Assembly: GCF_019649055.1 (NCBI RefSeq)
Contig: NW_026570283.1
Span: 1 to 64,000, forward strand
Direction: 5' to 3'
DNA from: Paramacrobiotus metropolitanus
Taxonomy: Eukaryota > Tardigrada > Eutardigrada > Parachela > Macrobiotidae
DNA: 64,000 bases
Every line of letters begins with the position of its first letter. The stretch's first letter is position 1. The notes beneath the pieces were generated by a model. That model saw only the letters and a program-made list of their open reading frames with translations, made no database searches and was not told the origin of the DNA. Positions 1 through 18,659 of this stretch are shown here, one piece after another. Position numbers and translations under genes: made by a program.

Positions 1-3000
1 ACATTTCTGCGGAGATACAAATAAACTGGTTAAACTGAGATGGATGGATGACATATGCCGCGGCCTTACAAAGAGGAGGACATCAGGGTGTGCGACACAA
101 CGAAACCAACAAGAGCAACTGCAGCCCTTTGCCAGTAAGTCACCTGCATCGCGAGGTGTCAGTCTAAGCCACCCCTAACTCAGTTGACAATATTATTAAA
201 TAGAATTAGCAAAGCTAATTCCGGTTAACGCAGCGGAGGTGTTCGCAAGGCTGGACGACTTGGTTAACCAGTGTCCAGCCAAGAAAACCCATTAGGGTGT
301 GTCCTGGGAGGCAGATCCCGATGCTGTATAAGCAATGCAGTTTCGGTTGTGGACGTTGCATTTGTAGTGATTGTGCATTTCTGTTAGTGCATTTGAGTTG
401 CTGTCGTATTGGAGTAAAGATGTTTTGCATTTAACAAGTCGTTCTTAAATAACAATACGTCGTCTGCTGTAATACTGCTGTAATAACAATACTGCTGTAA
501 TAACAATACTGCTGTAATAACAATACGTCGTCGTTCGTCGTCGTCGTTCTTTTAATTGAGGATCAATAATTTTTTTTTTTGTTCATTATGCCGTCTCGTC
601 GTGCTGTCTCACAATCAACCAGCCGCCGATCAGATGCGTCTCGTAGCCGTTCGCGCTCCAGATCCACATCCCGGTCGGCTACGCGTTCTCCTCCTCCGTC
701 GTCCAGTTCGTCCAGTCACTCCAGTTCTACGCGCTACCAAGTAAATGATAAGCGCAAAGCATCCACGTCACGCGATTCAAAGCGTCATTCCGTTGGTTCT
801 GGTGAGTCATTAGACCGACTTCTCCGCCTTAAATCGGAATTGCGTCATGAATTACGGAAGTTGGACAATCACACGTCGCAGGTGTTGTCATCTCAACTTC
901 CTTCACGTACACAGTCAGTTTCTCCTAATAAATCCCGAGACAGTGTTTTGCTTGTATCGGAACAACACCATCCTGTCCAGTTTCCACGTTTGCCAATAGC
1001 GGCGAGATTGGGTTTTGAGTTGCCGTCTGTTCCTTCAAGAGTTGAACGTGAATTGCGTGATCGCACCAAGTTTGTTCATTTTAGTGAGCTGCTGTTGGTT
1101 AATCAGAATTTGGATTCTCATGACCGCGGTGATTCATCCCGTGGCAAATTGGCGCCAATTTCTTCATTTGCAGAGTGGTGTGAAGCGTTCTTTGTGTTTA
1201 TGTCTTATCGGGCGCATTACTTCCCTCAGTTGCAGCACCCATTGTTGAAGTATATGAGTATTATTGCGAGTATGGCTAATCCAAAGCGTCAATATCACAT
1301 TAGCCAGTGGCTCGCTTACGACCAGCAATTTCGGATGTTTGCTCGTATGCATCCTGATGATTGTTCGATTTGGCAGCGCACTGATAATGAGATTTTCCGT
1401 TTGACTATGATTATGCCTGGTAATGCTGTTGCTAATCGCGGCAATATCAGTACTTTTGGCAGTGGTTATACTGGTGTAGGTTATACCGGCACTGGACATA
1501 CCGGCTATACCGGCACTGGTTATACCGGTCCTGGTTATACCGGCAATGCGCGTAAGTGTTTACGCTGTCATTTGTTTGGTCATTTGGCTCGTGAATGTCC
1601 TGACAAAATTGCGGAAGATGCTATTCGTATGCAATCCAGTGAGCAGCTTTTTCGCGGGCGTGGAGTATCCGACCGTAGAGCTGTCTGCATCGATTTCAAC
1701 AAAGGAAACTGTTCAACACCATGTAAGAATAAACTTCGGCATATGTGCTCCTATTGTACCGGCGCCACCCATGGAGAGTACAGCTGTTGGAAATTGCGCG
1801 ATGCCGGTAAATCCGGCAACACCGCTTAAAATTGGCGTTTTCATAGAGCTGCTTGCGCCACATCCTGATCGTTCTTTTGTTAATCAGATTGTTACTATTT
1901 TGCAACATGGTGCTAATATCGGTTATTTTGGTCCTCGTGTTTCTGTTTATACACCTAACTGTAAATCGGCTAAAATCCATAAAGATGTTTTACTTAAATC
2001 TGTTCAAAAAGAAATCGATCTTGGTCACACGGTTGGCCCTTTTCGGCATGCACCATTTGTTAACATGGTATGCAGTTCATTAGGCGTGGTGCCTAAAAAG
2101 ACATCTGGTTTTCGTATTATTCTTGATTTATCGCGGCCAGTCGGCCAGTCTGTGAACGATTACATTGATAAAGCTACATTCTCATTATCATTTTGCTCAG
2201 TAGATGACGCTATCGCCTTACTTAAACGATTTGGGAAAGGCGCCTTAATGGCGAAACAGGATATTAAACATGCCTTTCGGCTGATTCCTGTAAGACGAGA
2301 AGACTGGCATTTATTAGGCTATTGTATAGAGGGTCTATATTATTTCGATGTTGTTCTTCCTTTCGGCTGTCGATCCTCGCCATATCTTTTCTGCTTATTC
2401 TCTCAAGCATTACATTGGATTGTTGCCCACATGTTTGGTTTTGATAATTTACTTCATTATATGGATGATTTCTTCTTCGTTGGTAAATCAAAGTCGGCTG
2501 AGTGTACTAATATCGTGCAGCTGTTTATCGCTGCCGCTGATCGGTTGGGTATTCCATTAGCCACAGAAAAGGCAGAAGGACCGGCAACGAAACTGACCTT
2601 TCTTGGTGTTGAATTGGATTCAGTCGCGTGCACTATTGCCTTACCGCCTAATAAGCATGCCGCTATCCTGTTGTTATTACAGCAGTGGGCAGTGCGTTCA
2701 TTGTGCACCAAGACAGAGCTGCAAAGTCTCATTGGTACTTTACAGTTTGCGGCAAAGTGTGTGCCGGTTGGTCGCCTGTTTGTCCGGCGTATGATAAATT
2801 TATTACCTGTATCCGGTACTGACGCAATCGTGCTTGGAGCAGACATCCGGGAAGATATTCAGTGGTGGTTAGATTTTCTCCCTATTTGGAACGGCTCGAA
2901 TTGTTTCCTCGATGTCGATTGGTCGGGTTCTGATGTGCTGCAGTTTTATACTGATGCCTCCAGTACCATTGGTTTTGGTGGTTATTTTAATGGGAAGTGG

Positions 3001-6000
3001 TTTAGTTGTTTGTGGTCTGAGCTAAGTTCTCGGCCGTTTTATTCAATTGAATGGTGCGAGCTTGTTCCTGTCTATGCCGCATGCTGTATATGGGGTTCTG
3101 ATCTCTGTCAGCGAAAAGTGCTGTTACATTGTGACAATTTGGGAGTTGTCCAAGCTTGGAACAAATTCTCCACGTCTTCTTTATCTGTAAATATTTTGAT
3201 GCGTAAGATATTTTTCTTAGCGGCTAAGTATAATTTTAATTTGAAAATTTCGCATATTCCGGGTTGTTCAAATAAGATTGCCGATGCGTTATCTCGGCAA
3301 CAGTGGGTTCGCTTTCGGTCATTAGCACCGCTGGCTGATGCATCGCCATGCGTGTTGCCTGCTGATTTCTTTACTTCTTTTTCGTCATGAATACCACATT
3401 AAAGCGCCTGTTACGTAACCACATATCTTCGTCGACTCGTCGTACATACAGAGCTGGTGTATCGTCATATTTTCGTTTTTGTAAAGTAAAGAGTGTAAAT
3501 GTATTCAGCACTTCGTCTGTTGCACTGTTTATTGCTAATCTTTTTGACAAACATATTGCATATTCAACTTTAAAAGTCTATTAAGCGGCTTTATCTAACT
3601 GGTATAAGGAACACGGATATTCCGACTACACAGATTGTAGTGCTGTAAGACAGGCAGTAAAGGGTTATGCCCGGTTGATTCCACCGGTGCTAGACCGTCG
3701 ATGTCCCGTGACACTTTCCGTTATGAAATGTATTAAACAATGCATTCTTGATTCGGCATTGTCTGCCTATGCACAGTGTTTGCTTTGGGCAGCGTGCACT
3801 ATCGCATTCTTCGGATTTTTACGACCAAGTGAGTTTGTTACCTCACATCGACATTCGTTTATCACTCATCGTACTTTGTTGCAAAGTGATGTTCTAATTA
3901 AAGAACGTTATGTGCTTCTGAATATCAAACGGTCAAAAACCGATCAAGTCGGAAGAGGCTATAAACTTTATTTACGTCCCACTCATCGGTCAGTATGCCC
4001 GTACCGGGCTGTTAAACGGTTTTTGTTGTTGTGTACTGATCGGTTTCCTAGTACCCTTCCCTTTTGTACCTTTGATGACGGTTCTTTCTTGTCTCGCAGC
4101 CGATTTGCAAGTTTGCTTAAATTAGTGTTGCGTTATCATCCTGAACTTAAAGATTTATCTCCACATTCGTTTCGTATCGGCGCAGCGACTGTTGCTGCCG
4201 ATCGTAATTACTCATCCGAGGCTATAATGAAAGCTGGTCGGTGGAAAAGTGATGCGTATGCCCGATACGTTCGTTTACCGCGTACTGTCGAGGGCTTGCG
4301 TCCGTACTAATTTGATGGGGGTTTGGGGGGTTGTTTTAGCAAGGACTGCGGGGCCGGTTGCGCCGGTGTCCCGTGTTCCGGTGCTAGTGTCTTCACCCAA
4401 TGCCCAAATAAAACTGAATCGTTGTTATGTGTTGTTGTTGTTGCACCCGTAGACTGCGTTAAATAGAATTAGCAAAGCTAATTCCGGTTAACGCAGCGGA
4501 GGTGTTCGCAAGGCTGGACGACTTGGTTAACCAGTGTCCAGCCAAGAAAACCCATTAGGGTGTGTCCTGGGAGGCAGATCCCGATGCTGTATAAGCAATG
4601 CAGTTTCGGTTGTGGACGTTGCATTTGTAGTGATTGTGCATTTCTGTTAGTGCATTTGAGTTGCTGTCGTATTGGAGTAAAGATGTTTTGCATTTAACAA
4701 GTCGTTCTTCCCTCCCGCCCACCCTCTTTTGCGAGGGGAAGGGGGGTTGTTTTAGCAAGGACTGCGGGGCCGGTTGCGCCGGTGTCCCGTGTTCCGGTGC
4801 TAGTGTCTTCACCCAATGCCCAAATAAAACTGAATCGTTGTTACGTGTTGTTGTTGTTGCACCCGTAGACTGCGTTAATAACTGCGTTTACTTGCCCTTT
4901 GCTCATACACGCGTTCGTCACTCGTATGGGAACATTGCGATCAATGGCTAGAACCGTCGAACGCTACGACCAATAGACATTGCAAAATGCTGCCACTGTT
5001 CTCTTTTCCAGTTACACCAGACGCGTGGAAGTGGAAATTGAATTCCGTAAAAATGTTCCAAGTCTAATTTCCCACAGTTAGCACATCGTGAGAACGTGAC
5101 AAAAACTCGCAAGTCCTAAAGATCCAAGCGTAAATGTTGTATGCCTGTGAAATCGTTTTTTCCTTTTTATTCGTTTTCAAAACCGTTTTATAATGGAAAG
5201 TACGGAAAAAAGTATTGTATCTGATCAGCGGTTTTATTGCGAAATTTGCGAAATTTCCGGAGAAGAAAGAAGTTATAGCTGTGAGAAAAGCCTGAAAAGA
5301 CATCTGCGTGAATTTCACAAACATCCAAAACACTCTGTAAAAGGTAATAAAAAATTTAATCTCTAGAACGCAAATATTGCATGATTGGATTTTGCAAGAT
5401 ATTGTTAGCACTACTGACTGTCTTTGCAATAGCGTCAGGAGCAGTTAAGGTGTGTGTATGCAACGAAACGAGCTGCGGTTTCCGCTATCTGCACATGGAA
5501 CAATTTGTTAAGCATCTGGCTGAAACCCATGGACTTCAACATCGAATGGTTAATCAGAATTTTGTTGGAGAAGAAGAGTTTGATAACTGGAAATCAGAAA
5601 TGCAGGAGCAAACTTGTTCCCAGTTTAACAAATATTCTGCCCTTACTAAGTCCAGGGATGTGACATGGCAAACTTATCTCTGCTTCCGCAGTCCCCGAAC
5701 AGAAGCTGAAGTGACTTCAACCACGCTAACCTTCCGGTGTTCAGCTTTTTTCAAGGTACAGTTAAAACTACGACTTGGAAGCAGCACTGGTCCAGTTAGC
5801 TGCAGCAACTAGAAAAGATAAAATCAAGTCAGAACTAACAGCGTATTGGGTTGAAATGTTTTACGCTTAACTATTAGCACGTAGCACCTAACTGAAATTT
5901 ACAGTGTCTTCAGATGAAATATCAGCAGCACCTAATTAGTAGCACCTAGTCAAAATTTACAATGTTTGCAGATAAAATATCAGTAGCACCTAATAAGTAG

Positions 6001-9000
6001 CAACTAGCCGAAATTTACAATGGTTTCAGATGAAATATCAGTAGCACCTAATTAGTAGCACCCAGCCAAAATTTACAATGCTTTCAGATGAAATATCAGT
6101 AGCACCTAATTACTAGCACCTAGCCGAAATTTACAAGAGTTTGAGATGAAATATCAGTAGCACCTAATAAGTAGCACCTAGCCGAAATTTACAATGTTTC
6201 AGATGAAATATCAGTAGCACCTAGCCGAATTTTACAATGTTTCAGATAAAATATCAGTAGCACCTAATAAGTAGCAACTAGCCGAAATTTACAATGGTTT
6301 CAGATGAAATATCAGTAGCACCTAATTAGTAGCACCCAGCCAAAATTTACAATGCTTTCAGATAAAATATCAGTAGCACCTAATAAGTAGCACCTAGCCG
6401 AAATTTTTAATGGTTTCAGATGAAATATCAGTAGCACCTAATTAGTAGCACCTAGCCGAAATTTACAATGTTTCAGATGAAATATCAGTAGCACCTAGCC
6501 GAATTTTACAATGTTTCAGATAAAATATCAGTAGCACCTAATTAGTAGCACCTAGTCAAAATTAACACTGTATTGAGTTGAAATATTAGCGGCACTTAAT
6601 TGGTAGCACCTAGCCAAAATTTACAATGCTTTCAGATGAAGTATCAGTAGCACCTAATTAGTAGCACCTAGCCGAAATTTACAATGGTTTCAGATAAAAT
6701 ATCAGTAGCACCTGGTCAAAATTAACACTGTATTGAGTTGAAATATTAGCGGCATTTGATTAGTAGCACCTAGCCAAAATTTTCAATGTTTTCAGATAAA
6801 ATATCAGTAGCACCTAATTAGTAGCACCTAGTCAAAATTTACAATGTTTGTAGATAAAACATCAGTAGCACCTAATTAGTAGCACCTAACCGAAATTTGC
6901 AATGTTTTCAGATAAAATATCAGTAGCACCTAATTAGTAGCACCTAGTCAAAATTAACACTGTATTGAGTTGAAATATTAGCGGCACTTAATTAGTAGCA
7001 CCTAGCCAAAATTTACAATGGTTTCAGATGAAATTTCAGTAGCACCTAGTCAAAATTAACACTGTATTGAGTTGAAATATTAGCGGCACTTGATTAGTAG
7101 CACCTAGCCAAAATTTTCAATGTTTCCAGATAAAATATCAGTAACACCTAATTACTAGCACCTAGTCAAATTAACAATGTACTGAGTTGAAATATTAGCG
7201 GCACTTAATTAGTAGCATCTAATTAAAATTTAAAGTGTTTAATTAGTGGCATCATACCGAAATTTACAGTGGCCACAGCTGAAATATCTGTGACATCTAA
7301 TTAGCAGTTTTATGTTATTGATTAGCCAGTAAGTAAGAAAAAATTACTTAGTAAACAGTAGCCTAACATTAAGCATTCAGTAACCAGCAACGTTTTGGAC
7401 CTGTACAATAGTATCAGTAAGTAAGGTTTTTAAAATAACAGTAAAAGTAAGTTAAAAGTAGAGGAAAATTCTGACTGGCAATATTTCTACTGACAGTATC
7501 ATTTTTATTGGAATTTCTTACGATTTCGCAATAAATTGCTCGTCACCTTCCCGCTTCGCGCGAAATTTGCTTCTTCACATAAGCTTTAGTTATTAGTATT
7601 TGGCTTAGTGAGTAAGTAATCTTTGAGGCGAATTAGTAAACAGCAAATAAAAGTAGCGTTTGGGGCAGCGAAAAAGTAACAGTAAAGTAAGTCTATAAAA
7701 AGCAAAAAAATAAGGAAGAGGTGCAAAAAACTCAGTAACCCATCACTGCGTAATTAGCACCACTTTAGACGAATTTCGCAGCGTATAGAGGTGAAACAGC
7801 AATGGCTTTTAATTTCCATATAATCATCTAAACGAACACTAATTCCACGCAATTAAACTTACTACTCAAAGCTTCCATTATTCTAACATTTTCAGATGTA
7901 CCGTAGCGGAAACGGAATAAGCATTCGTGGCTGCTTGGAACATTATGGCCACGACCCAGCCGAAGACGTGGCACAACAAAGAATTCCAGACAGCATTAGA
8001 CAAGAAATTGCCACACGAGTGAATTTAGGCGTCCCACCCAGAAAAATTGTTCGTGACCTTAGACGATCAGCCTTCCAGAAATATCAAAGCGGTAAAGCGC
8101 AGTTCCATGCAAATTCTTGTTTCATTTAAGTTGGCAAAAAATTTGTATTTATGTTAACAGCTGGACTTCCTCAGAGATTGGCTTTTTTGACCCTGCAGGA
8201 CGTATACAATATTCGGCGTGAGTACGGTTTGGAGTACCACTGCACTGACCCTAGCGATCTCTCCAGTATTGTTCTGGAAGCTGCGCGCCAGACCTCGCTG
8301 CCGGAAGAAGAAAAATCGATTTTGTTTTTCAAACATTTTGGAGACGAATCGGATTTATATCCGGACATCACAGACTCGCATTTTATTTTAATTGTCCAGA
8401 CGGATTCCCAAAAAAAGCACTTAACCAACCTCAGCTGCCGAAGTGTGTGCATCGACGGCACGCACGGAATTACCGGCCGCCCCGAATTTAAACTAATTAC
8501 TTTACTGACACTGGACGACAAGCAGCGAGGAATTGTTGTGGCACACTGCATAACAAACCACGAAGACGAAATTTCTGTAACTCATTTTTTTAAAGCTCTC
8601 GAATGCCAACTGAAAAACAAGGACGTGCAATGGTTTTTATCCGATGACGCAAACGCATTTTATAATGCATGGAAAAACGTTTTTGGAAATGCCGCACAGA
8701 AAATTCTGTGCATTTGGCATGCCCGGAAAAATGTCAATCAATGGCTGGATCGTCGATTGAAATCGCTGCGGTCCATAAAACAGAAATTTCGCGACATTAT
8801 GTATGCTCACAATGAGGAAGCTATGGAAAACGCGGTTGCTGAAATAAGACGAGCAATCAGCAGCCAACCGGATGTTCGGACCTATTTGGAAACACATTAC
8901 CTATGTCGAATTTCTGAGTGGGCACTCTGTCTTCGCTCTGGGGCAGATTTTTCAACAAGCTCCTTCGTGGAAAGTTTCCACAGGTAAGCTATCTGATATC

Positions 9001-12000
9001 ATCACTTACCGAAATAAAAATACTTTCATTTAAAAAAAAGTAAATTACCCATGTGACGGAATTACCAGTAAAGCGATAACAACATTTACCGAATACTATG
9101 TTAGCATACCAGAATAAATCAAAATTAGTACCACCTAAGCTGAGAATTCGTCGCACTAAACAGAAATATCAGTAGCACCTAATTAGTAGCACCAAATCGA
9201 AAGTTACAATTCCTCAAGATAAAATTTCAGAGGCGTTCAATTAGTAGCACCTAGACAATATTTACACTGTATCGAGTTGAAATGTTTGCGGTGGCACCTA
9301 ACCAAAATTTACAATGTCTTCAGGTAAAATATCAACAGCACTTACTGAGTAGCGCCTAAACGAGATAAGAATACAGATATCAAATATCAGTAGCACCTAA
9401 TCAGTAGCATAATCGAAGTTTTTTCAGTTGAATTATCAGTGGCACTTATCAGAATAAAAGTGAGGTGGTACGAGTAGCACTGAATTATCCATTTGCTTTT
9501 CAGAAATCTGAAACGCTCGTACCTGGAAGGAAAAAACGGCTTAAGAATAGACGAATTTCACGATTCGTTAAGTGATTTCATTGAGCACGATTCCATCAAA
9601 CGTTTTGCGGAAGATGCAAAAAAGACTCCATCCTTCAGGATTCGTGAATTAGCAAAAGGTCATCGACGCTCGCAGCTCGTAGAAGATAAATACGAGTTTG
9701 AAGTAGATTCTGACAAGCGGTGGCTGTGCACTAAGCTTTCTGACCCCGATTGTGTTTACGTAATTTTGCAAAAAGATTGTGCAAATGAAAGCTGCGCGTT
9801 CAAATGCCCGGACTGCCGGACAGATGTCTGCGCCCATTCTTTAGTTTGTGACTGCATCGGATCCATCAGTGGTTTCAGAGTGTGCAAACATGTCCATCTG
9901 CTTTGTTCCAGCACGGTTGATGTATCGAACATACATCTACAGGTACAGTACTAATTACTAAATCACTATGCAGTCATAAATATCAACACCAATTTGGTGG
10001 GTAAGTTGTGCAGCATAAGCTTTAAATAATAATTATTACTAGTCACAATTATATTAGTCACATTTCGGCACTCCCTTTATCTGCGTGGGCGACTTTACGT
10101 TTTCGGCAGCATTTACGTAGATAATACTTTATATAACAGTAAATTACTCAGGTCCGTACAAGGTATGAAACGTAAGCAATAAAGTACCTACATACTTTGC
10201 GACCTGAGTTACGAGTTTTAGTCGTCATTACAATTGTTCGAATGTAATTCTCCTTATCACGTCGCGGGTATTCAAAATTATCAGACTTTTCCTATACAAA
10301 CATGTCGAGCGCGGATGCACGTGTTTACTTTGTACCGAATAAAAGGTAAAAAAAGATAGAGTACGAAGTGGTCACCTAATAAATTTTATAGAAAACGCGC
10401 GGCGAAGTTAGCCATGTAGATCTGAGAAGTGTGGGAGGCGAATCGACAGGAGTTCCCTATACATTCAGCGAAGCGGTTGAACTGGAGCAAAATTACAGCC
10501 TAGCTGACATTGACCTTTCCGGACAAGTGGTATGCACTGACAACTCAAGTTCCATGGTCAGTGAAGCGAACAAAACGGCACGTTCAAGCCAGAAGAAACA
10601 TAGAAAGAAAGATTTCAAGGGCAGACTGTCGTCTCTAATGGATATCATTACCAAGCTGAGTGCAAGTCAAACCATGGAGGATTATGACGATATCGACAAA
10701 CTTGCATCGCTGGCGGAAACCCTCGACGTTAAGCGGACGCTAAAATTAAGCCACCCGACAATCGTGCTTGATAAAGCCCGGCAGCGTAATTCCCGACTAA
10801 AAGTCCAGAGCAGAAAATTTAAGAAAACGAAGAAAAGCTGTGGTCTACAACTGACCAACAAAAAGGTCGGTGGTATGAGTACTAAATTAACGAAGTAAAA
10901 TTTCGCTTGTTCTGTCGTGGTTAATTGTCATATCGTCAGTTTTAATTATCAGGACAATAATAGAATTTTGTATGCTTGCAGTGTACAAACGGAAGTTATG
11001 TTTGATTCAGAAAAAATGTTTCGATAACTTGCGAATTATATAAAATACGTATTTGTTAAACAAAACATTTTTTGATTTTGATGTGGTAGCTGATACGCGG
11101 TAGTTCTCAATCCTTTTCACCTAGAAACCGACCCAGTTCAGCATCGTGGGGATCGGGACTTTTATCGGTTATCCGACGCCGTTCGCGTATACCGTAGCTT
11201 ATTGATTTTATCTAATTATGCCACAATGAAATATCAGCTCACGTGCATAGCCATTCAGTAAGTCTTGAAAATAACAAAATAACAATTCGAAAATATTGAA
11301 ATATTCGTGCCGTTAGTTTTCATGCTGTACAACAGTTATTGGCACAACTGTGCATATGTTGGTCAACCTAGCAAACGGTGGCCGTAGAAAATCATGACAA
11401 ACTATCAGGAGAACCAGAACTAACGACACTGTTACAACTTCCCATGTACAGTTAGTTCCTAGTGTCACGCGGACTCAAACAGCGGAATTCCAACCGTTCC
11501 ATCCGTGCTTCAGTTCCATGTGGCGGCGCAATTCGGGAATCTGTCCTCCGTTAAAGCCGCTTTCCGAGCACAAGCTGCAGTGCAAGCGCAGCTGATACTT
11601 TGGATACTGCTTCAAGTGCTCCTTTCGGAAGTGCTGATGCATGGTATACATACTCATAGAAAGATACTTTGGCACGGAGCAGTTCGGCAGGGGACAACGA
11701 GCTCTTTTCTGCGGAAACAGTAACAATTACACCACCAACTTTGCCAAAAATTAAAAATATTTGCAAAACAGACCAAAGAAAAGAAAATCTAAATTCTGAT
11801 AAGAAATTCGAAGTGTTATTTCGATACCCTTTCAATCAGTATACATAATATTGAAGAGTCATGCGACGCAATAACTGTGTTTGAAGAATTTAGTATAAAT
11901 TAATAAAAATCGTCCAAATCGTGTTAACGGCAAAGTCGGCAATAACTTACAGCGTCCCACTTTACGTCAAAAATGACTGGTTCCTTTCTTTCTTCGGCCT

Positions 12001-15000
12001 GCGCTGAGCTATCCGAATTTTGGCAATTGTCACCGTTCACTCCATTATCACCAAATTTATTGGCTACAAATGATAGCAAATTTAGCGGAAATTCTCTACC
12101 GATATACATCAATCCGTTTCTCACTGTCTGATTCCGCGGCATCACGCACAACATCCGAAGTATCCACCCGAAATACAGGTCGACTATGCATCGGTTCATC
12201 CAGCGATTCCTGTGCAGTGACAACACTTTTGCGAACGTTCGTCTCAGAATGATGTCGTGAGCGCTTGGCTTTACTAGCTGCAGAAGCCTTTTGCGGAAGA
12301 CGCGACATATTGCGTTTAAGGCCTTTTGTCTTGATTGGTTTCGGCGCATCGTCGGCACTGTTAGAGTTCGAATGCAGTGAGGCCGCGCACTCGTCACTGT
12401 TGTCCCTGGAGGAGGGTTCCGGATGAGCCGGTGGGCGAAGCGGGGTGCGCTTTGTTGTCCCATACTTCTTATTACCAGAAACACTATAAATACGGGCTTT
12501 TCGAGTCTTAATCGACTCCGATCCACCGCGTGCCTGCAGTAGGGGATATCGCTGGTTTACAGTGTGCAGGCGATAAACGGCTTTTTTCTTTGCAAATAAC
12601 AACATACAAATTCGTGAATCAATATTGAAAACATGCACGCAGTACTATGTGGATCAAGACTGACCAGGGCATATTTTCCGGGTCTAAATTCAAAAAATGC
12701 TGATATTTCCATAAAGGAATAATGCTACCTTAGTATATTTAAAAAATCAATTTCATCTGCAAAGGCTCAAAAGGCGTGGCAAAGCAACAATAAAATGTTA
12801 ACGAAGTGTTACATACAGTTTACTGCTATTTGGAGCACTGGTGTTGCGCAGTCTCCTCATGATAGCTTCGTTTTGATTTTGCGAGCGACGCACTAGTTGT
12901 GGACTCTTCAGCAAGCCCCTCATGTCATCCCAGCCAAATTAATACTTGTCAGAAATTTTTCTAAATTATTAATTAAACCGTAGACAAGGAGTGCCTGCAT
13001 ACCAAGCTGTATTAATGTGCTTTTATATTAGTAATAACCGATAGCAAATTTTGGAAATTTAAAATTTTGCATTAGCGGCAGGGCCACGGCTACCGCATGT
13101 GTGCACTAGTTAAACACCAGGACTTGACAACTGGTAGGGTCCAATAATTTGCTCGTGCAATACGGTAAAATTCTATCAACAAAAAATATAGCCTGAAAGA
13201 GTACATACTAAGTACTGCACCAATACACGGCAACAGTACGTAGTGCTGTGTGTTCATTCATTCAAATCGAATTTCAAGACGTATAGTTCAGCATATTCAG
13301 CAAGCGCACTTACAGATGTACATTTATAGTATTGTACTAGTACTCACAAGTACAGCACTGCTACGCCAAGTTCGGACACTTTCCTCGAAAGATTATGACA
13401 AGTCACCCATTAAGAATTAAAACCGCTTTTCATTTTTGTATGATCAGCGTATGTGTCAAGCAACTTTTTCATTTAAAGTTATAAGCTGAAAGCATGCTTC
13501 GAATTACAGTGAGGTCTAAACTAGAACCGCCCAGCTTCCAAATACGGCTCGACCTATCTGTTCTGGGATGCATCTCCCTTTTCACAATTCGTTTAAAAAT
13601 TCCACACCTTTTCTAGTCTAGATTAGTTAATTTTATGGTGTTTGCCAATCAATTCACTTGCGGATGGTGACTAACATAGACCCATTTCTAGGAAGACCAC
13701 GTGACCTTTGCAGCATTCCTGCGGGCACCATCAAAATACAGGATGAACTTATTCGGGCGCTAGCTGTACAGCCGTGAGCAGTCGCAATTGCCTAATCTTG
13801 ATAAAATCTTGTTTACAGAGGATTGTGCAACTACTTCAGATTTTTGATTCCCACAAAAACCGGATACGTATCGTCCCAACGAATTATAATATCAATCATA
13901 GCATTTTTTAGACTGCTTTGTTAGGTTTTTCTGCCAGTTGTCCGGTATGTAAGTAAAAGAGGCCCACGTGCGTCGGCTCGTGCCATTGCTGCCTGTGTGC
14001 ACATTTTCAAAAATTTGTTATGAAGTACAGCACAGATCTGTGTATTAGCAGAACAAAGTTTTTGCACAACTTATTGTTTACAACACAAATTGATGAAAAT
14101 TTTCCGAAAATGTGTATTCAGGCAGCAATGGCCCGAGCCGACGCACGTGGGCCTCTTACTTACAGCATTTCACGACAGCGGACAGCTGCAAAAGTCCACG
14201 GTGCCGCAGGAAAAAGTTTACATAATAATGACCAGTAACTTGTACTGCACTGCATTACACAGTATATGATAGTATGCTAACTTTTTATTGTTGTCTGGCC
14301 ACGCCCTCTTGACGATGGCAGCTAAAAATACTTTTTTAAGCATACTACAATAGTACACTACTATTTTACAAAACATGAAAATTTTTTGAATTTGGAGGCG
14401 GAAAATGTTCCCTGGTTAGTGGTATTTTGAAAAATTTATGCTAAATTTTACGAAAAAATCGTTGTATTCATTTAACTCATTTGATGGCAGTAACTTACAG
14501 CGGCCCAAATCGCATCGAAAACGGCGCTTTCATTTTTTCTTTTGACCTGCGCGTCATCCGAATCATCCGAATCCGAACCATCCAAACCCTGGGATTCTCC
14601 CGAAAGCGCCCGAGAACCTTCTCACAGTCACATAAAGCATGATGAACTCATGTCAAGCAAGCACCACAACCTTTGAACATGCCAATGTAGCCATTACTTT
14701 CATCACAATTTAATCAAAAGCTGTCTTTGAACACTACCACACCAAGTGAAAAGAATTATTTTAACCTTGGTAAATTGGAATTTGGAAACATAAGTTTTGA
14801 TTCAAACTCAGCACTAAAATTCATTCCTCACCTGATGGCTTGGCCTGTACTTGACCGGACTGCTCGACGGCAAGCTTTGAGCGAGACGTTCGGTTAGTGT
14901 ATTTACTGAAGCCAGAAAACAACACATTATGTCTGAGTTGTATGTGCATACTCGTTAGGTCTATCACTGATTCATTGTTATCAAAACAAAGTTTTAAATA

Positions 15001-18000
15001 TTATTATTACTGGTGCAATACAATCTTGCCTAGCGACACCTTGATATTTATATAAATATCTGCCGTGTGCAACTATTTTATTTTAAGCGGCGTTTAACTA
15101 TTCAGGGCAAAATTGTCTCTAGCGGCGCTAATGTAAGTCGTTGAAATTCCGTTTTTCCAAATTCTGTCAGCCCGACTCCAGACCGATATATTCCAGTGCT
15201 GACCCCGATGGCGGTGCGGCCGCTGGCGTTAAACCGGTGCTTAAAAAGCATTCCGATCGACGTAGCCGCCGACTTAGAATGATACGGTAGGTGATTTTCT
15301 TCTGCATATCTGGAATATGTAAAAACTTTCCTGTTTAACTGGTTTTGCTTCATTCTCAGAAAAGTTACAGTAACTACATTTTCTGGAAGACCTAGATGAA
15401 ATAACACCTAGAAGAAATAACAAACGCAAACTCACTTTCTGAAAAATAAAAGCACTCCTGCTTTTGACGTCTTGGTGTTTGGAGATGCGGTAAAACATCT
15501 CTCAACCCTGAAATCGAAAACGGAACAATTAACATACCAAGAAACCGTCAGTGCAGTTATGCAGCCTTTGTTACAGCGCTGCCTAGTACCATGTTTCAAG
15601 TTCTTCGGCCACCTGGCATTCTCCGGTGTTCCCTGTTAAAAATTTTCTCTTCGGTTTTTTGTTATTTGCGTTAGGGAAACAATAAGATTTCTTCAAACAA
15701 ACTAGTTTTTTACGTGATGGAGTATCGATGTTCTCGTGCGCAGCCACATCCGCCTGGGAAGCACGTTGGCAAGCCTTTAAACTCTACGAGAAAATAAATG
15801 CTTCTTTTTAAAACACGAAGCATGGCATACACAAATTGGGCATTACACTAATAAATTCTGCATGAGCTTCGGATGCATTTTGAATGCATTTTCTTAATTC
15901 AGCACACTTTCGTCCGTTCTTGTCGGCTACAGATCGCTGTTCCTGAATTATCTGGTCAAAAGGAATTATATCTAAAAATAAAAAGCAAATCAAAAACCAC
16001 ATACCAGCGTTATGGGTAATCGATGTATTTGTTTGTTCATTTATTATTTCTTGGGCTCAGTTCTACTGCTTCCGTGTTATTGGTATTTCAGCTAAAGACT
16101 TTAAATTTCAGTTAATTCCTAATAATTCGGTGCTATTTATGTTTGATATATCGGTTAATTTTAATTCCGGTTAGGTGGTCCTGATTGGGCGCTGCTGATA
16201 TTTGAACTCAATACTGTTAATTTTAACTAGGTGCTACTAATAAGGTGCTACTGATATTTTATCTGAAAACATTGCAAATTTTGGTTAGGTGCTATTAATT
16301 ATGTGCTACTGATATTTCAACTCTATACAGTGTTAATTTTGACTAAGTGCTACTAATTAGGTGCTACTGATATTTTATCTGAAAACATTGCAAATTTTGG
16401 CTAGGTGCTACTAATTATGTGCTACTGATATTTCAACTCTATACAGTGTTAATTTTGGCTAGGTGCTACTAATTAGGTGCTACTGACATTTTATCTGAAA
16501 ACAATGTAAATTTTGGCTAGGTGCTACTAATTATGTGCTACTGATATTTCAACTCTATACAGTGTTAATTTTGGCTAGGTGCTACTAATTAGGTGCTACT
16601 GATGTTTTATCTGAAAACATTGTAAATTTTGACTAGGTGCTACTGAAATTAACTATGTTAACACTAATTTCGGTTAGGTGCTACTAATTAAGTGTGGCCA
16701 GCAAGTACCTTTGGTAGGAACCCAGGCTGCATTCACATGAGCGTCCGCCATGAAAAACATTACAAAGGACGAAGCTTCTCTGTTTCCGCACAGGTTCCTG
16801 CTGTTTTTGCCTTGCTGGGGATCAGTAATTCGTGCCGGCCACTTTACAATCTCATTTCGCGAATAACGGCCTGAAATAAATTGAACATAAAAAAAATTTC
16901 ATACCAAGTGCGCAGTTCAGATCCGTGAAAAGCTGCTTGCCAACGTTTCATATTTAGAGTTTTGTTTTAACCAATACGCATAGAAATACATTTTCTTTCA
17001 GCCCAGACTATTTCTCCAATCTTGAATTCCTCCATTCGTTGCCAGCTGACTGCTAGCGTTGATGGTTGGCCGATCAAATGTTCCTATGAAAACACACAAT
17101 TAATTAAGTTCTTTCTAAAATATTTTTGAAATCGCATCCTCAGATAAAACCCTACAAACAGCACACATCTCCAGCTCCCATTCATGAATACTTTTTAGCA
17201 AAATCGAACTGGGAAGATCGGTTTCAACCGAAGAAAGATGCAAGTTAAAATTGCACTATTGCGCAACTGCAGCGACAACCAGAACACCGTCATACACTCC
17301 AATATATCTCACTTACTCAGACACACATGGCCTGTCAGACAATGAAAACTAACAATTAAATCCAATTATCGTGATCGCACTCCACAGTACTCACGGTTTG
17401 TAAAACTAATTTACCTCTGACATTAGTGATCGCACTAACATGTTGCACTTACCGGAATTTCCTTCAATAAATTTGCTGAAAGGGATCGGTCGAGAATCGT
17501 TCCTGTTGCAACAGTTTACGCAGCCACTGACAGAAAATAGAGTCAACTAACCGTTTTATGGTAATTTCACGTCTTGCAAACCAACTGGTAAGTATAAATA
17601 AGACACATTCTAGTCAAGAAAAAGTAACAACGTTCACCGTGCCACACACTTTTTCAACACATGGTCACACAATTTGTGTTTGCGAATTTTCATAAGTTTT
17701 TAGTATGCCCTGACCGCATTACATTAATGCAGACATGCAAAAATGGAGTTCCATATTATTATAACGTTGTAATGCAGCCCAGTGGAAACCGGTGTTTCGC
17801 AATTTCTGTTGGTTGTGAAGTTCAGCGTTTGTGGCCAATGATCGCGATGTTCCCATACGAGGGACGAACGCGTTTGCTCATACACCTTACGTGATTTCTC
17901 GTAGGTGAACAAACAGCTACTCACAATCAGTTGCAAAGACGAATCCGCTTACAGTCAGCGCACTGCTTCCGTAGCGAACTTTGTGTCTACAAGGTGCACC

Positions 18001-18659
18001 ATCAGTTCATTCCGTATGGAAAAGAAGTGCAGCAGAAGCGAATGGAAGTTTGTTATGAAGCAGCCAGAGATCTGTATGCGCGCCCGGTTAGTCAACTGAA
18101 AAATGAAAAATGGCAGTCGTGTGCATGGAAGTACTGTAATATGGCCAGAATATGCGAAGCCGACTGGCAGATGATCTACCTCGGTCGCGAAACTTACCCT
18201 GAACAAGACATCCGCGGTTACATAGAGTGGCGGTTCAATCTAAAGGAAGTTGGTCAGTACCGGTTTATTGCAATGTACTTTAATTTTTTGGAGGGAAAGC
18301 TTTTCTTTCCTGGCTGAAAAACGTAAACGGCTGATTCTACTTTAGGATTCAAAGCTAAAAAACTAAAGGTCGCCGCGCTACATACAGCATTCCGCAACGG
18401 AGAAGTAAAGATTACTGCTGGCCCGCGAACATCGTCTGAGCGCTTTATCCTGACCGTATCCCCTCGCGGTTCTCCGCTTTGCATTGAAGAAGCCGTCGGA
18501 TGGGAAGACTTTCTGATAAGAGTGGAGTTATCAGGTGCATGTGTCGATGGCCAGGTCAGTCAGGATTCTCAGCTTTTCCCGCAGTTTTCACCGGAGGTCT
18601 ACGGAGAACAGGCAGAAAGCGGTTTGCGGATTGTGGTAGACATGTGCTCTCTGTTTTGA
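1..18659 (+). CDS. Host gene of unknown function, interrupted by two transposons in one intron (5' partial)
   Basis: I do not recognise this protein. Three exons fit in one frame: from the window edge to 134 (open, ending at a consensus donor CCA|GTAAGT, phase 1), 17905-18252 (acceptor TCTCGTAG) and 18346-18659 (acceptor CTACTTTAG, stop TGA at 18657). Phases agree at both junctions. The visible product is about 248 residues, rich in charged and aromatic residues, with cysteines in exon 2 (FRSELCVYKV, WQSCAWKYCNMARIC) that would suit an extracellular domain. No signal peptide is visible because the 5' end is outside the window. The intron 135-17904 holds the Ngaro and MULE elements. A further in-frame piece near 18742-18859 could be an alternative last exon. 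The link between exon 1 and exon 2 across 17.8 kb is inference from splice sites and phase, so the first exon is the least certain part. Confidence 0.45.
198..446 (+). repeat. Split direct repeat A1
   Basis: This 249-bp segment recurs at 4461-4709. It begins AAATAGAATTAGC and ends CAAGTCGTTCTT, after which the two copies diverge abruptly. It forms the left end of the Ngaro-type element. Confidence 0.9.
447..548 (+). repeat. Short tandem repeat in the 5' leader of the retrotransposon
   Basis: Just after A1 there are three or more copies of a 17-bp unit (ACTGCTGTAATAACAAT), followed by a TCG-rich microsatellite up to about 548. It precedes the gag start and is probably untranslated leader. Confidence 0.75.
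579..1829 (+). CDS. gag: Gag-like protein of the Ngaro-type element
   Basis: This is a 416-residue frame. The N-terminus (roughly residues 1-70) is a Ser/Arg-rich basic tract, which would suit RNA binding. A central alpha-helical region with no recognised motif follows. Residues about 295-320 form a Gly-Tyr-Thr-Gly repeat (units of GYTGTG type). Immediately after is a CCHC zinc knuckle (CLRCHLFGHLAREC), and then a second Cys/His cluster (CIDFNKGNCS...CSYCTG). In this retroelement class such proteins package the RNA. A second ATG three codons downstream (588) is an alternative start. Its end overlaps the RT frame, so RT is probably made by frameshifting or re-initiation. Intact. Confidence 0.82.
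   Translation: MFIMPSRRAVSQSTSRRSDASRSRSRSRSTSRSATRSPPPSSSSSSHSSSTRYQVNDKRKASTSRDSKRHSVGSGESLDRLLRLKSELRHELRKLDNHTSQVLSSQLPSRTQSVSPNKSRDSVLLVSEQHHPVQFPRLPIAARLGFELPSVPSRVERELRDRTKFVHFSELLLVNQNLDSHDRGDSSRGKLAPISSFAEWCEAFFVFMSYRAHYFPQLQHPLLKYMSIIASMANPKRQYHISQWLAYDQQFRMFARMHPDDCSIWQRTDNEIFRLTMIMPGNAVANRGNISTFGSGYTGVGYTGTGHTGYTGTGYTGPGYTGNARKCLRCHLFGHLARECPDKIAEDAIRMQSSEQLFRGRGVSDRRAVCIDFNKGNCSTPCKNKLRHMCSYCTGATHGEYSCWKLRDAGKSGNTA
1546..3390 (+). CDS. pol: Reverse transcriptase-RNase H polyprotein of the Ngaro-type element
   Basis: This is an open frame of 614 codons, +1 relative to gag, overlapping gag by 284 bp; the true N-terminus is not determined. RT motifs are visible in order: a GFRIILDLSRPV block, the first catalytic Asp in MAKQDIKHAFR, and the YMDD box in LLHYMDDFFFVG at about 2455-2490. 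The RNase H domain follows with the Asp in FYTDASSTIGFGG (about 2945), a Glu in SIEWCELVPVY, the Asp in LLHCDNLGVVQAW and a closing ADALSRQQW. The enzyme copies the element RNA into DNA. It ends in an ATGA overlap with the recombinase frame, which suggests termination-reinitiation. No break is seen. Confidence 0.87.
   Translation: MRVSVYAVICLVIWLVNVLTKLRKMLFVCNPVSSFFAGVEYPTVELSASISTKETVQHHVRINFGICAPIVPAPPMESTAVGNCAMPVNPATPLKIGVFIELLAPHPDRSFVNQIVTILQHGANIGYFGPRVSVYTPNCKSAKIHKDVLLKSVQKEIDLGHTVGPFRHAPFVNMVCSSLGVVPKKTSGFRIILDLSRPVGQSVNDYIDKATFSLSFCSVDDAIALLKRFGKGALMAKQDIKHAFRLIPVRREDWHLLGYCIEGLYYFDVVLPFGCRSSPYLFCLFSQALHWIVAHMFGFDNLLHYMDDFFFVGKSKSAECTNIVQLFIAAADRLGIPLATEKAEGPATKLTFLGVELDSVACTIALPPNKHAAILLLLQQWAVRSLCTKTELQSLIGTLQFAAKCVPVGRLFVRRMINLLPVSGTDAIVLGADIREDIQWWLDFLPIWNGSNCFLDVDWSGSDVLQFYTDASSTIGFGGYFNGKWFSCLWSELSSRPFYSIEWCELVPVYAACCIWGSDLCQRKVLLHCDNLGVVQAWNKFSTSSLSVNILMRKIFFLAAKYNFNLKISHIPGCSNKIADALSRQQWVRFRSLAPLADASPCVLPADFFTSFSS
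3387..4310 (+). pseudogene. Tyrosine recombinase of the Ngaro-type element, with one in-frame stop
   Basis: The frame starts in the ATGA overlap with pol. It runs open to a TAA at 3582-3584, then continues open in the same frame to a stop at 4310 (308 codon positions in all). The N-terminal part (SSTRRTYRAGVSSYFRFC) looks like a core-binding domain. The C-terminal part has the expected integrase tetrad: an Arg in FGFLRPSEFV, a HxxR box in HSFRIGAAT and the nucleophile Tyr in YARYVR. In this class the enzyme integrates a circular DNA intermediate. Only one substitution separates this copy from an open frame, so the damage is recent, or the stop is read through. I see no deletion. Confidence 0.82.
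4325..4460 (+). repeat. Split direct repeat B1
   Basis: This 136-bp segment starts with a G run followed by TTGTTTTAGC and ends at GACTGCGTT. It recurs at 4741-4876 with about one difference (GTTATG versus GTTACG). It abuts A2 directly. Confidence 0.88.
4461..4709 (+). repeat. Split direct repeat A2
   Basis: Second copy of the 249-bp A repeat, directly joined to B1 on its left and separated from B2 by about 31 bp of C/T- and G-rich sequence. Confidence 0.9.
4741..4876 (+). repeat. Split direct repeat B2, right end of the Ngaro-type element
   Basis: Second copy of the 136-bp B repeat. It ends at ACTGCGTT; the host intron resumes with AATAACTGCG. Confidence 0.87.
4898..4909 (+). repeat. Left target-site duplication of the MULE
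   Basis: TTTGCTCATACA directly precedes the left inverted repeat and matches the 12 bases that directly follow the right one. Confidence 0.85.
4910..4993 (+). repeat. Left terminal inverted repeat of the MULE
   Basis: It begins CGCGTTCGTCACTCGTATGG and pairs with the reverse complement of 17789-17872. The outer 40 bp match at all but about four positions; similarity then falls and is lost after ~84 bp. It lies about 200 bp upstream of the transposase start and may contain its promoter. Confidence 0.85.
5193..10898 (+). CDS. MULE transposase with C2H2 fingers, DDE domain and SWIM-type finger (six exons)
   Basis: The exons are 5193-5343, 5439-5755, 7896-8091, 8161-8983, 9504-9942 and 10392-10898. 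They sum to 2433 nt, giving 810 residues with all phases consistent. Two C2H2-type fingers are at the N-terminus (C16-C19-H37-H42 and C58-C63-H76-H81), probably for binding the inverted repeats. The catalytic domain shows the MULE signature: D320 in VCIDGTHG, D383/384 in WFLSDDANAFYNAW followed by CIWHARK, and E492 in SFVESFHR. A SWIM-type CxC-x9-CxH finger follows (C611, C613, C623, H625). The last exon encodes a basic Lys/Arg-rich tail. The enzyme should cut and paste the element. No break is seen. Introns 2 and 4 are filled with the GTAGCACC satellite. The start was chosen as the first ATG upstream of finger 1. Confidence 0.88.
5868..7305 (+). repeat. GTAGCACCTA satellite array in transposase intron 2
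   Basis: About 25 imperfect tandem units of ~57 bp. Each has two GTAGCACCTA boxes separated by ATTA, then a GCCGAAATTTACAATG stretch, TTTCAGAT and AAATATCA. A second variant (CACTGTATTGAGTTG with GCGGCACTTA) is interspersed, giving a higher-order pattern towards the right end. The array makes up most of the 2.1-kb intron between exons 2 and 3. Confidence 0.92.
7306..7895 (+). other. Remainder of transposase intron 2
   Basis: This stretch has no gene. It is AT-rich, with scattered AGTAAGTA and AGTAAC motifs that look like a decayed second short repeat, and it ends in the acceptor ACATTTTCAG of exon 3. Confidence 0.5.
9120..9445 (+). repeat. Second GTAGCACCTA array, in transposase intron 4
   Basis: About five degenerate units of the same ~57-bp repeat, in the same orientation, inside the intron between exons 4 and 5. 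They are more diverged than those in intron 2. Confidence 0.85.
10899..11474. other. Spacer between the two convergent MULE genes
   Basis: No coding potential is visible. It must hold the 3' ends of both convergent transcripts. I see no clear AATAAA signal here. Confidence 0.4.
11475..17035 (-). CDS. PWWP-domain and C2H2 zinc-finger protein carried by the MULE
   Basis: Exons read on the minus strand: 17035-16990, 16870-16709 and 15971-15847 (phases agree), then less certain ones at about 15783-15590, 15507-15436, 15380-15190, 14905-14831, 14620-14499, 12533-12110, 12066-11951 and the last at 11708-11475 (stop TGA). The first three encode a PWWP domain: FKIGEIVWA (W12), KWPARITDP (W26-P27), FVMFF (F51-F55), AAWVP and then IIPFDQ plus an amphipathic helix. 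PWWP domains read methylated histones or DNA. The middle is basic and Ser/Lys-rich. The end has two C2H2-like fingers (CPLPNC...HQHFRKEH and CSLC...RRHMELKH). The gene lies wholly between the inverted repeats, convergent with the transposase. It may target or protect the element in chromatin (inference). Internal exons need transcript support. Confidence 0.62.
12665..14414. mobile_element. Nested 1.75-kb inverted-repeat element with CAGGG ends
   Basis: The left arm (CAGGGCATATTTTCCGGG..., 12665 to ~12830) is matched by the reverse complement of the right arm (~14245 to 14414), including blocks around AAATTCAAAAAAT and GGCGTGGC...CAACAATAAAA. CAGGG-type ends resemble hAT elements, but the flanking 8 bp do not match, so no duplication is demonstrated. 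It lies in an intron of the PWWP gene. I see no transposase inside, so it would be non-autonomous. Confidence 0.55.
13945..14170. repeat. Foldback repeat inside the nested element
   Basis: The left arm (GTAAGTAAAAGAGGCCCACG..., about 13945-14010) and right arm (about 14105-14170) are reverse complements over about 65 bp with few mismatches. They share GCGTCGGCTCG and CCATTGCTGCCTG blocks. It could form a long hairpin. Confidence 0.75.
16105..16692 (-). repeat. GTAGCACCTA array in an intron of the PWWP gene
   Basis: About nine to ten units of the same ~57-bp repeat as in the transposase introns, but inverted on the map. The minus strand reads GTAGCACCTA, so the array is again in the sense direction of its host gene. 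It lies directly downstream of the donor of PWWP exon 2 (16709). Confidence 0.9.
17036..17788 (-). other. Upstream region of the PWWP gene inside the right end of the MULE
   Basis: About 750 bp between the right inverted repeat and the PWWP start codon. No coding exon is seen. It presumably holds the promoter and 5' leader, possibly with a non-coding first exon. Confidence 0.35.
17789..17872 (-). repeat. Right terminal inverted repeat of the MULE
   Basis: Reverse complement of 4910-4993. The plus strand ends CCCATACGAGGGACGAACGCG at 17872. A 77-codon ORF crossing it has no counterpart in the left repeat and is not a gene. Confidence 0.85.
17873..17884 (+). repeat. Right target-site duplication of the MULE
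   Basis: TTTGCTCATACA immediately after the right inverted repeat, identical to 4898-4909. The host 3' splice site (TCTCGTAG) follows 20 bp later. Confidence 0.85.

What the first reader, a model, noticed from the sequence alone, without database searches (positions are those of the whole stretch)
11475..17035. The MULE carries a PWWP chromatin-reader gene convergent with its transposase
Three phase-matched exons give FKIGEIVWA, KWPARITDP, FVMFF and AAWVP followed by a helix, a PWWP pattern. The gene ends in two C2H2 fingers and lies entirely between the inverted repeats. A transposon with its own histone- or DNA-methylation reader could steer insertion, resist silencing or act with the transposase. 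I know of no named family with this pairing. Capture of a host gene (Pack-MULE style) is the alternative.
Basis: partly seen in the sequence, partly recalled or inferred. Interest (0 to 1): 0.85.

Follow-up and report, generated by a model that had tools for sequence, protein, structure and literature searches.

The report
Jumping gene carrying a chromatin-reading protein
A family of large transposons in this genome carries, next to its transposase, a conserved gene for a protein with a chromatin-reading PWWP domain, which suggests that the element brings its own tool for dealing with host chromatin.

Summary
The PWWP observation holds, and the gene belongs to the element. The window copy is a 12,965-bp MULE (4909-17873) with 79-bp inverted repeats and a 10-bp target duplication. 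Three phase-matched exons encode a PWWP domain (Pfam 39.5 bits, cut-off 25.6). Transposase searches of the genome gave 9 loci; 8 of 9 carry the same second gene, convergent with the transposase; the ninth, C76, is a different compact MULE without it. Two other families (transposases 46-50% identical to the window's) have clearer PWWP domains (46.7, 48.2 bits). Two nearly identical 15.4-kb copies with different target duplications show that the gene moves with the element. It is under purifying selection, with dS like the transposase's. This argues against a one-off Pack-MULE capture. Correction: the window gene stops at 15102, after a second conserved domain, as in the other families; the C2H2 exons are not joined to it in any reading I could make. 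The searches found no transposon-encoded PWWP in print. The function (element-to-chromatin tether, or anti-silencing) is inferred.

The parts
4899..4908 (.). target site duplication, left copy (TTGCTCATAC)
   Evidence: matches 17874-17883
4909..4987 (+). left terminal inverted repeat
   Evidence: 79 bp, pairs with 17795-17873
5881..7240 (+). tandem array of 58-bp units with motif GTAGCACCTA, 5' of the main transposase exon
8130..8987 (+). main transposase exon (MULE catalytic domain)
   Evidence: PF10551 36.8 bits, cut-off 27.6
9484..9954 (+). transposase, later exon (found in 5 of the 6 family A/B copies; not in internally deleted C11)
10392..10898 (+). transposase tail ORF (partly conserved in 5 of the 6 family A/B copies)
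16990..17035 (-). second gene, exon 1: start of PWWP (MEEFKIGEIVWAERK)
16709..16870 (-). second gene, exon 2: PWWP core
16163..16650 (-). 58-bp tandem array, inverted relative to the left one, in the intron between exons 2 and 3
15847..15971 (-). second gene, exon 3: end of PWWP with C-terminal helix region
   Evidence: second copy at C355:626-757
15590..15783 (-). second gene, exon 4: linker
   Evidence: 41% aa identity to C355
15436..15507 (-). second gene, exon 5: start of second conserved domain
15102..15309 (-). second gene, exon 6: second conserved domain (possibly winged helix) and stop codon
11339..12529 (-). separate C2H2-like cassette, 75.6-88.6% identical in DNA to C25:983 kb in three alignment blocks; not shown to be joined to the PWWP gene
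17795..17873 (-). right terminal inverted repeat
17874..17883 (.). target site duplication, right copy

Best explanation
The PWWP gene is a resident second gene of a clade of large (13-15 kb when not deleted) MULE transposons, inherited together with the transposase. It encodes a protein with an N-terminal PWWP chromatin-reader domain and a C-terminal conserved domain that is probably DNA-binding. Most likely mechanism: the PWWP domain holds methylated (probably H3K36-methylated) nucleosomes while the C-terminal domain holds element DNA or the transposase. The protein would thus couple the element to active chromatin, either to choose insertion sites or to keep the element from being silenced. 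Shown here: element membership, conservation, selection, PWWP identity by sequence, and movement with the element. Inferred: the ligand, the partner of the C-terminal domain, and the function.
For: Element anatomy: TIRs and TSD. Association: transposase searches gave 9 loci; 8 of 9 carry the second gene, convergent with the transposase. A PWWP search with the family B protein hit exons at 6 of 6 family A/B loci and otherwise only a weak C185 match, E=0.55; the window PWWP query hit only C63 and C355. PWWP identity in three families: 39.5, 48.2 and 46.7 bits, cut-off 25.6; family B aligns to the solved PWWPs of DNMT3B, MSH6 and ZMYND11. Movement: C29 and C77 copies are 99.3-99.6% identical over about 15.4 kb with different 10-bp TSDs, so the whole unit with the gene transposed recently. 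Co-inheritance and selection (Fisher tests on rounded approximate counts): family A v B, transposase dS 0.72, w 0.08; PWWP dS 0.74, w 0.23 (p 1e-7); C-terminal domain dS 0.82, w 0.12 (p 4e-14). Window v C355: transposase dS 0.63, w 0.11; exon 3 dS 0.83, w 0.26 (p 0.003); exons 5-6 dS 0.79, w 0.14 (p 1e-10). TAGCACCTA occurs 46 times in the window element and 2 times in the other 51,035 bases of the window; the arrays sit in a second-gene intron and 5' of the main transposase exon, which resembles the VANC targets described in PMC5735166 (section 9 read).
Against: No expression or binding data. The window copy's PWWP is the most diverged and has a 5-residue insert before WPA, and alone finds no PDB chain at E up to 1, so it may have lost or changed its ligand. 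The C-terminal domain is only weakly assigned: Pox_D5 20.9 bits, just under its cut-off 21.4, in family B; 15.1 in family A; no Pfam match for window or C355; RFX comparison not supportive, hhalign probability 6%; fold of exon 6 alone of low confidence, pLDDT 60.5. The 58-bp motif arrays are absent from the five family A/B copies scanned, so repeat binding cannot be general. The window PWWP scores higher against a host-like PWWP gene than against family B (181 v 100), and so does family B (135), so the PWWP half may have been acquired or replaced more than once. Within families the estimates rest on very few changes (e.g. PWWP C38 v C30: 2 and 2; w 0.31). Several copies are broken: stops or frame breaks in the C11, C30 and C77 transposases, a frame break in C11 PWWP exon 2, C355 internally deleted with a stop in exon 8 (my reading).
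Confidence: 0.6

Rival explanations
1. The protein is mainly an anti-silencing factor like VANC of Arabidopsis VANDAL elements: it binds motif arrays in its own element and counters repressive chromatin, with the PWWP domain recognising or displacing a host mark.
For: Motif arrays in an intron of the second gene and 5' of the main transposase exon in the window and C355, with a shifted motif between the two; VANC targets also form tandem repeats in such places and change between relatives (PMC5735166 section 9).
Against: The five family A/B copies scanned have the gene but no such arrays (C3 has only a 9-bp-period array). No sequence likeness to VANC was tested. Host silencing marks in this species are unknown.
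Confidence: 0.3
2. Passenger: a host PWWP gene captured by one element (Pack-MULE style) without a role in transposition.
For: Two intron positions inside the domain, with phase, are shared with a host-like PWWP gene at C29:424017 by all three element families, and a third by the window gene (read), so the ultimate source is probably a host gene.
Against: Present at 8 of 9 transposase loci in three families, with dS like the transposase's and dN/dS well below 1; a passenger would decay.
Confidence: 0.07
3. PWWP and C2H2 fingers form one protein.
For: C355 has no stop at the end of exon 6 and has a splice donor there (my reading); exons 7 and 8 are alike in window and C355; skipping exon 6 keeps the window frame up to exon 9. 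The finger block has dN/dS below 1 against C25 (0.38 and 0.54).
Against: In-frame stop at 15102 in the window, where the genes of families A and B also end; stops after exon 9 in the joined reading with the sites tried; a stop in C355 exon 8 (my reading); fingers found only in the window and at C25, plus two weak hits at C67; much lower dS to C25 (0.14-0.22) than between element copies.
Confidence: 0.06

Closest known systems
MuDR of maize (mudrA + mudrB)
   Same: MULE with a transposase gene and a second gene; mudrB described as apparently required for integration (passage of PMC6446971); mudrB convergent with mudrA (recalled)
   Different: No PWWP mentioned in the passages seen; plant element
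VANDAL21/Hiun of Arabidopsis (VANA, VANB, VANC)
   Same: MULE with accessory genes; VANC binds motif arrays in introns and upstream of the transposase (PMC5735166, abstract and section 9 read)
   Different: VANC carries DUF1985/DUF287 (figure legend), no PWWP mentioned in what I read; arrays here in two of the seven elements scanned
LEDGF/p75 (host PWWP tether of lentiviral integrase)
   Same: PWWP reader joined to a second domain that recruits an integrating enzyme (abstract starts listed)
Mutyl (yeast MULE with MutB)
   Same: MULE with a second ORF of DNA-binding role (PMC6446971 passages)
   Different: No chromatin reader mentioned in the passages seen
Rehavkus (MULE-related)
   Same: Chromatin-type PHD finger and a minisatellite listed for it (table in PMC6446971)
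   Different: Listed with one ORF; PHD finger, not PWWP
Pack-MULEs
   Same: MULE ends around host-derived gene sequence
   Different: Here the transposase is kept and the gene is conserved across families

Membership tests
MULE (Mutator-like) transposons | MULE-type transposase domain | tested here: met
   PF10551 36.8 bits, cut-off 27.6, at 8130-8987
MULE (Mutator-like) transposons | terminal inverted repeats | tested here: met
   79 bp in window; 81-87 bp family A; 143-145 bp family B
MULE (Mutator-like) transposons | 8-11 bp target site duplication (range recalled; 8-11 bp entries seen in the table of PMC6446971) | tested here: met
   9-10 bp at C63, C29, C77, C38, C30, C11 and C397 (7 of 9 copies with both ends seen); the C25 copy has a 9-bp match displaced by 7 bp; C3 none
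PWWP domain proteins | score above the curated Pfam cut-off | tested here: met
   39.5 (window), 48.2 (family B), 46.7 (family A) v 25.6 bits
PWWP domain proteins | five-strand barrel fold plus C-terminal helices | not testable with these tools
PWWP domain proteins | aromatic pocket for methyl-lysine | tested here: inconclusive
   Y, W, F positions aligned in families A/B; window has a 5-residue insert next to them; binding untested
Pack-MULE | host gene fragment without transposase, not conserved between elements | tested here: not met
   transposase present; gene at 8 of 9 transposase loci
VANC-type anti-silencing protein | sequence-specific binding to motif arrays in its own element | not tested
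   arrays present in window and C355, absent from the five A/B copies scanned; binding needs experiment
mudrB-type accessory protein | sequence homology to MURB | not tested
   no MURB sequence was compared
winged-helix DNA-binding domain (Pox_D5/RFX-like) | score above the curated cut-off | tested here: not met
   family B 20.9 v 21.4 bits; family A 15.1; window and C355 no match

The most novel reading that the evidence does not exclude
A clade of MULEs encodes its own chromatin tether: a PWWP reader fused to an element-binding domain that directs the transposition complex to H3K36-methylated chromatin and, in one lineage, docks on motif arrays inside the element. It would be a self-encoded counterpart of LEDGF, the host tether of lentiviral integration.
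Probability: 0.3. Interest if true: 0.88.

Novelty: new variant of a known kind. Interest (0 to 1): 0.72.

Why it matters
How DNA transposons choose insertion sites and escape silencing is largely open, and the MULE accessory proteins with a known role that I met in the review passages come from plants and yeast. A conserved element-encoded histone-mark reader would give a concrete, testable molecule: reader-pocket mutants against insertion-site maps. It would also be a natural example of the PWWP tethering that has been engineered in lentiviral vectors (PMC5082951, title and abstract start).

Tried and rejected
One-off capture: rejected, since 8 of 9 transposase loci have the gene.

Gene ending in C2H2 fingers: not supported for this copy. 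The finger cassette matches C25:983 kb, whose status (host gene or element relic) I could not settle: the window's TIR, transposase and PWWP queries found nothing in the 20 kb fetched around it beyond an N-terminal transposase match at E 0.23 or in the next 8 kb; inverted repeats were not searched for there. A LSM14-like ORF nearby was recognised by eye only.

First impression that the long inverted arms were the element ends: rejected; they are inverted 58-bp arrays, and the true ends are the 79-bp repeats.

RFX-like winged helix: recognised by eye, not supported by Pfam or hhalign (probability 6%); Pox_D5 near threshold only; PHROGs gave one hit at E 0.34 and NCBIfam none; the PDB profile search gave 3 hits, best E 1.4.

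Fold of exon 6 alone: mean pLDDT 60.5, two strands, uninformative.

C29:424017 looked like GLYR1 by eye; the one downstream ORF that I tested had no Pfam match, so the name is not claimed.

dN/dS between window and families A/B was not usable: transposase dS saturated.

A tardigrade transposon paper was looked at in passages only and has no PWWP (PMC11071193).
Full report
WHAT IS THERE. The window is the first 64,000 bases of contig C63 of a 169.8-Mb assembly. Between 4909 and 17873 lies a transposon of 12,965 bp with 79-bp inverted repeats, 81% identical, and a 10-bp direct repeat TTGCTCATAC at both outer edges. The + strand carries a MULE transposase (PF10551, 36.8 bits against a cut-off of 27.6).

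THE GENE. Six exons with GT/AG borders and matching phases (17035-16990, 16870-16709, 15971-15847, 15783-15590, 15507-15436, 15309-15102) give a 268-aa ORF with its own stop. Residues 7-106 match Pfam PWWP at 39.5 bits, cut-off 25.6. The fingers at 11475-11708 are not part of this ORF. The equivalent genes of the two other families stop right after the same last domain (...KIIVRY-stop). The sister copy C355 differs: it has no stop there and goes on into exons 7-8, where I read a stop. Joining the window's finger exons by skipping exon 6 meets stops after exon 9 with the splice sites tried. The finger cassette (11339-12529) is 75.6-88.6% identical in DNA, in three alignment blocks, to C25:983 kb, with dS 0.14-0.22 and dN/dS 0.38-0.54 (p 0.09 and 0.04). 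That is far less divergence than between element copies. A finger search found the window, C25 and two weak C67 matches.

OTHER COPIES. Transposase searches with the window and family B proteins gave 9 loci: C63 (window), C355, C29, C77, C3, C38, C30, C11 and a weak C76. DNA around the 8 loci outside the window was fetched and searched. Family A (C29, C77, C3; 14.5-15.5 kb, TIRs 81-87 bp) and family B (C38, C30, C11; 9.8-14.5 kb, TIRs 143-145 bp) have both ends. Eight of 9 loci have the second gene, convergent with the transposase. PWWP exon 2 is present in 7 of these 8 (with a frame break in C11); C355 is cut by the contig end before it. The final exon of the last domain is present in 7 of 8; C11 lacks it. 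C76 is a 3.65-kb MULE with ends at C76:444203-447851 and no such gene. C29 and C77 are 99.3-99.6% identical but have different TSDs, so a 15.4-kb unit including the gene moved recently. TSDs of 9-10 bp were seen in 7 of 9 copies with both ends in view; C3 shows none and the C25 deletion copy a displaced one.

PWWP IDENTITY. Family B scores 48.2 and family A 46.7 bits. A profile of window, A, B and the host-like C29:424017 domain finds 66 distinct PDB sequences at E up to 0.01, the best being DNMT3B, NSD2, NSD3, MSH6 and HDGF. Family B alone aligns to DNMT3B, MSH6 and ZMYND11, with the aromatic positions GY..WPA and VQFF kept. The window copy has a 5-residue insert there, and the window protein alone finds no PDB chain at E up to 1. 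A PWWP profile search of the genome at E up to 10 gave 8 matches, 2 over cut-off: C29:424017 (a host-like PWWP gene) and C33:820879 (followed by an AWS domain, so NSD-like); the window's exon 2 was one of the weaker six. The family B PWWP query reached 6 of 6 A/B loci but not the window or C355, and the window query reached only the window and C355, so the halves of the clade are far apart.

SELECTION. Nei-Gojobori estimates (Fisher tests on rounded counts). Families A v B: transposase dS 0.72, w 0.08; PWWP dS 0.74, w 0.23; last domain dS 0.82, w 0.12. Window v C355: transposase dS 0.63, w 0.11; exon 3 dS 0.83, w 0.26; exon 4 dS 1.29, w 0.34; exons 5-6 dS 0.79, w 0.14. Within families: PWWP w 0.30-0.31 on 2 and 2 changes; last domain 0.26 on 7 and 7. 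Similar dS says that both genes travelled together; low w says that both proteins were kept working. Window v A/B could not be used because synonymous sites are saturated.

ORIGIN. Two intron positions in the PWWP, both phase 1, are the same in window, families A and B and the host-like gene at C29:424017; a third, after AH.EF, is shared by window and host (my reading). The domain therefore probably came from a host gene with introns, long ago. Window PWWP scores higher against the host gene (181) than against family B (100), and family B also scores higher against the host (135). One old capture followed by fast divergence, or two captures, both fit.

HOW IT MAY WORK. The last domain is conserved across families (29-33% identity; in the two pairs tested no shuffle of 500 reached the score). 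It is near the Pox_D5 winged-helix model but below its cut-off, and RFX likeness was not supported. In the window, 58-bp arrays with TAGCACCTA (46 in the element, 2 in the other 51,035 bases) sit in the intron between exons 2 and 3 and 5' of the main transposase exon; C355 has arrays with a shifted motif. VANC proteins of Arabidopsis MULEs bind motif arrays in such places (PMC5735166, abstract and section 9). Of seven elements scanned for tandem repeats (C77 was left out), only the window and C355 have the 58-bp arrays, which is against repeat binding as the general function. My best account is a reader that couples element or transposase to methylated chromatin; anti-silencing is the main rival.

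LITERATURE. Searches for MULE/Mutator-like with PWWP (1 paper, an Arabidopsis radiation study, seen as listing; 0), PWWP domain with transposon, transposase and accessory protein (416 papers with 3 of 4 terms, the 20 listed seen as listing only) and PWWP encoded by a transposon (0) showed no transposon-encoded PWWP protein. A review of MULE diversity mentions mudrB, MutB, VANB/VANC and an unknown second ORF in MULE-Co, and the word PWWP does not occur in its main text (PMC6446971, passages). A 2026 survey of arthropod MULEs does not mention PWWP and gives lengths up to 10 kb (PMC13359780, listing and passages). The library holds open-licence papers only, so absence is not proof.

LIMITS. One genome, eight elements, no transcript, no binding data, and no structure of the spliced domain. 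Copy counts are lower bounds, as the tool states.

Noticed in passing
C38 element, L006 (oriented coordinates 15693-15373, minus strand): Family B element C38 also carries a Ulp1-type (C48) protease exon, 24.5 bits v cut-off 20.7, as Kaonashi MULEs of plants do (recalled).
   Followed up: partly
C76:444203-447851: Compact MULE with 103-bp inverted repeats, a 494-aa transposase ORF and a further ORF downstream that looks Ulp1-like by eye (no Pfam match); no PWWP gene.
   Followed up: partly
window 5881-7240 and 16163-16650: 58-bp tandem arrays in opposite orientation in the left and right parts of the element; also in C355 with diverged units, absent from the five family A/B copies scanned.
   Followed up: partly
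C25:784969-790053 and C397:17375-17939: Non-autonomous copies with the window's TIR type (5.1 kb and 0.57 kb); TIR hits like C397's with the same score at C309, C78, C72, C32 and C28.
   Followed up: partly
window 196-446 and 4459-4709: Two 251-bp direct repeats, 100% identical, near an ORF that looks like a tyrosine recombinase (Pfam Phage_integrase E=0.056, below cut-off): perhaps a DIRS-like or Crypton-like element next to the MULE.
   Followed up: no
window 13940-14165: Inverted repeat of about 60 bp around a short spacer between exons 8 and 9, perhaps a nested small element (seen by eye).
   Followed up: no
window 17895-18317: Right next to the element is an ORF with a PNGase PAW domain (62.5 bits): the insertion lies beside or in a host N-glycanase-like gene.
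   Followed up: no
C30 oriented 15359-18318: A shortened family A copy lies directly beside the family B element.
   Followed up: no
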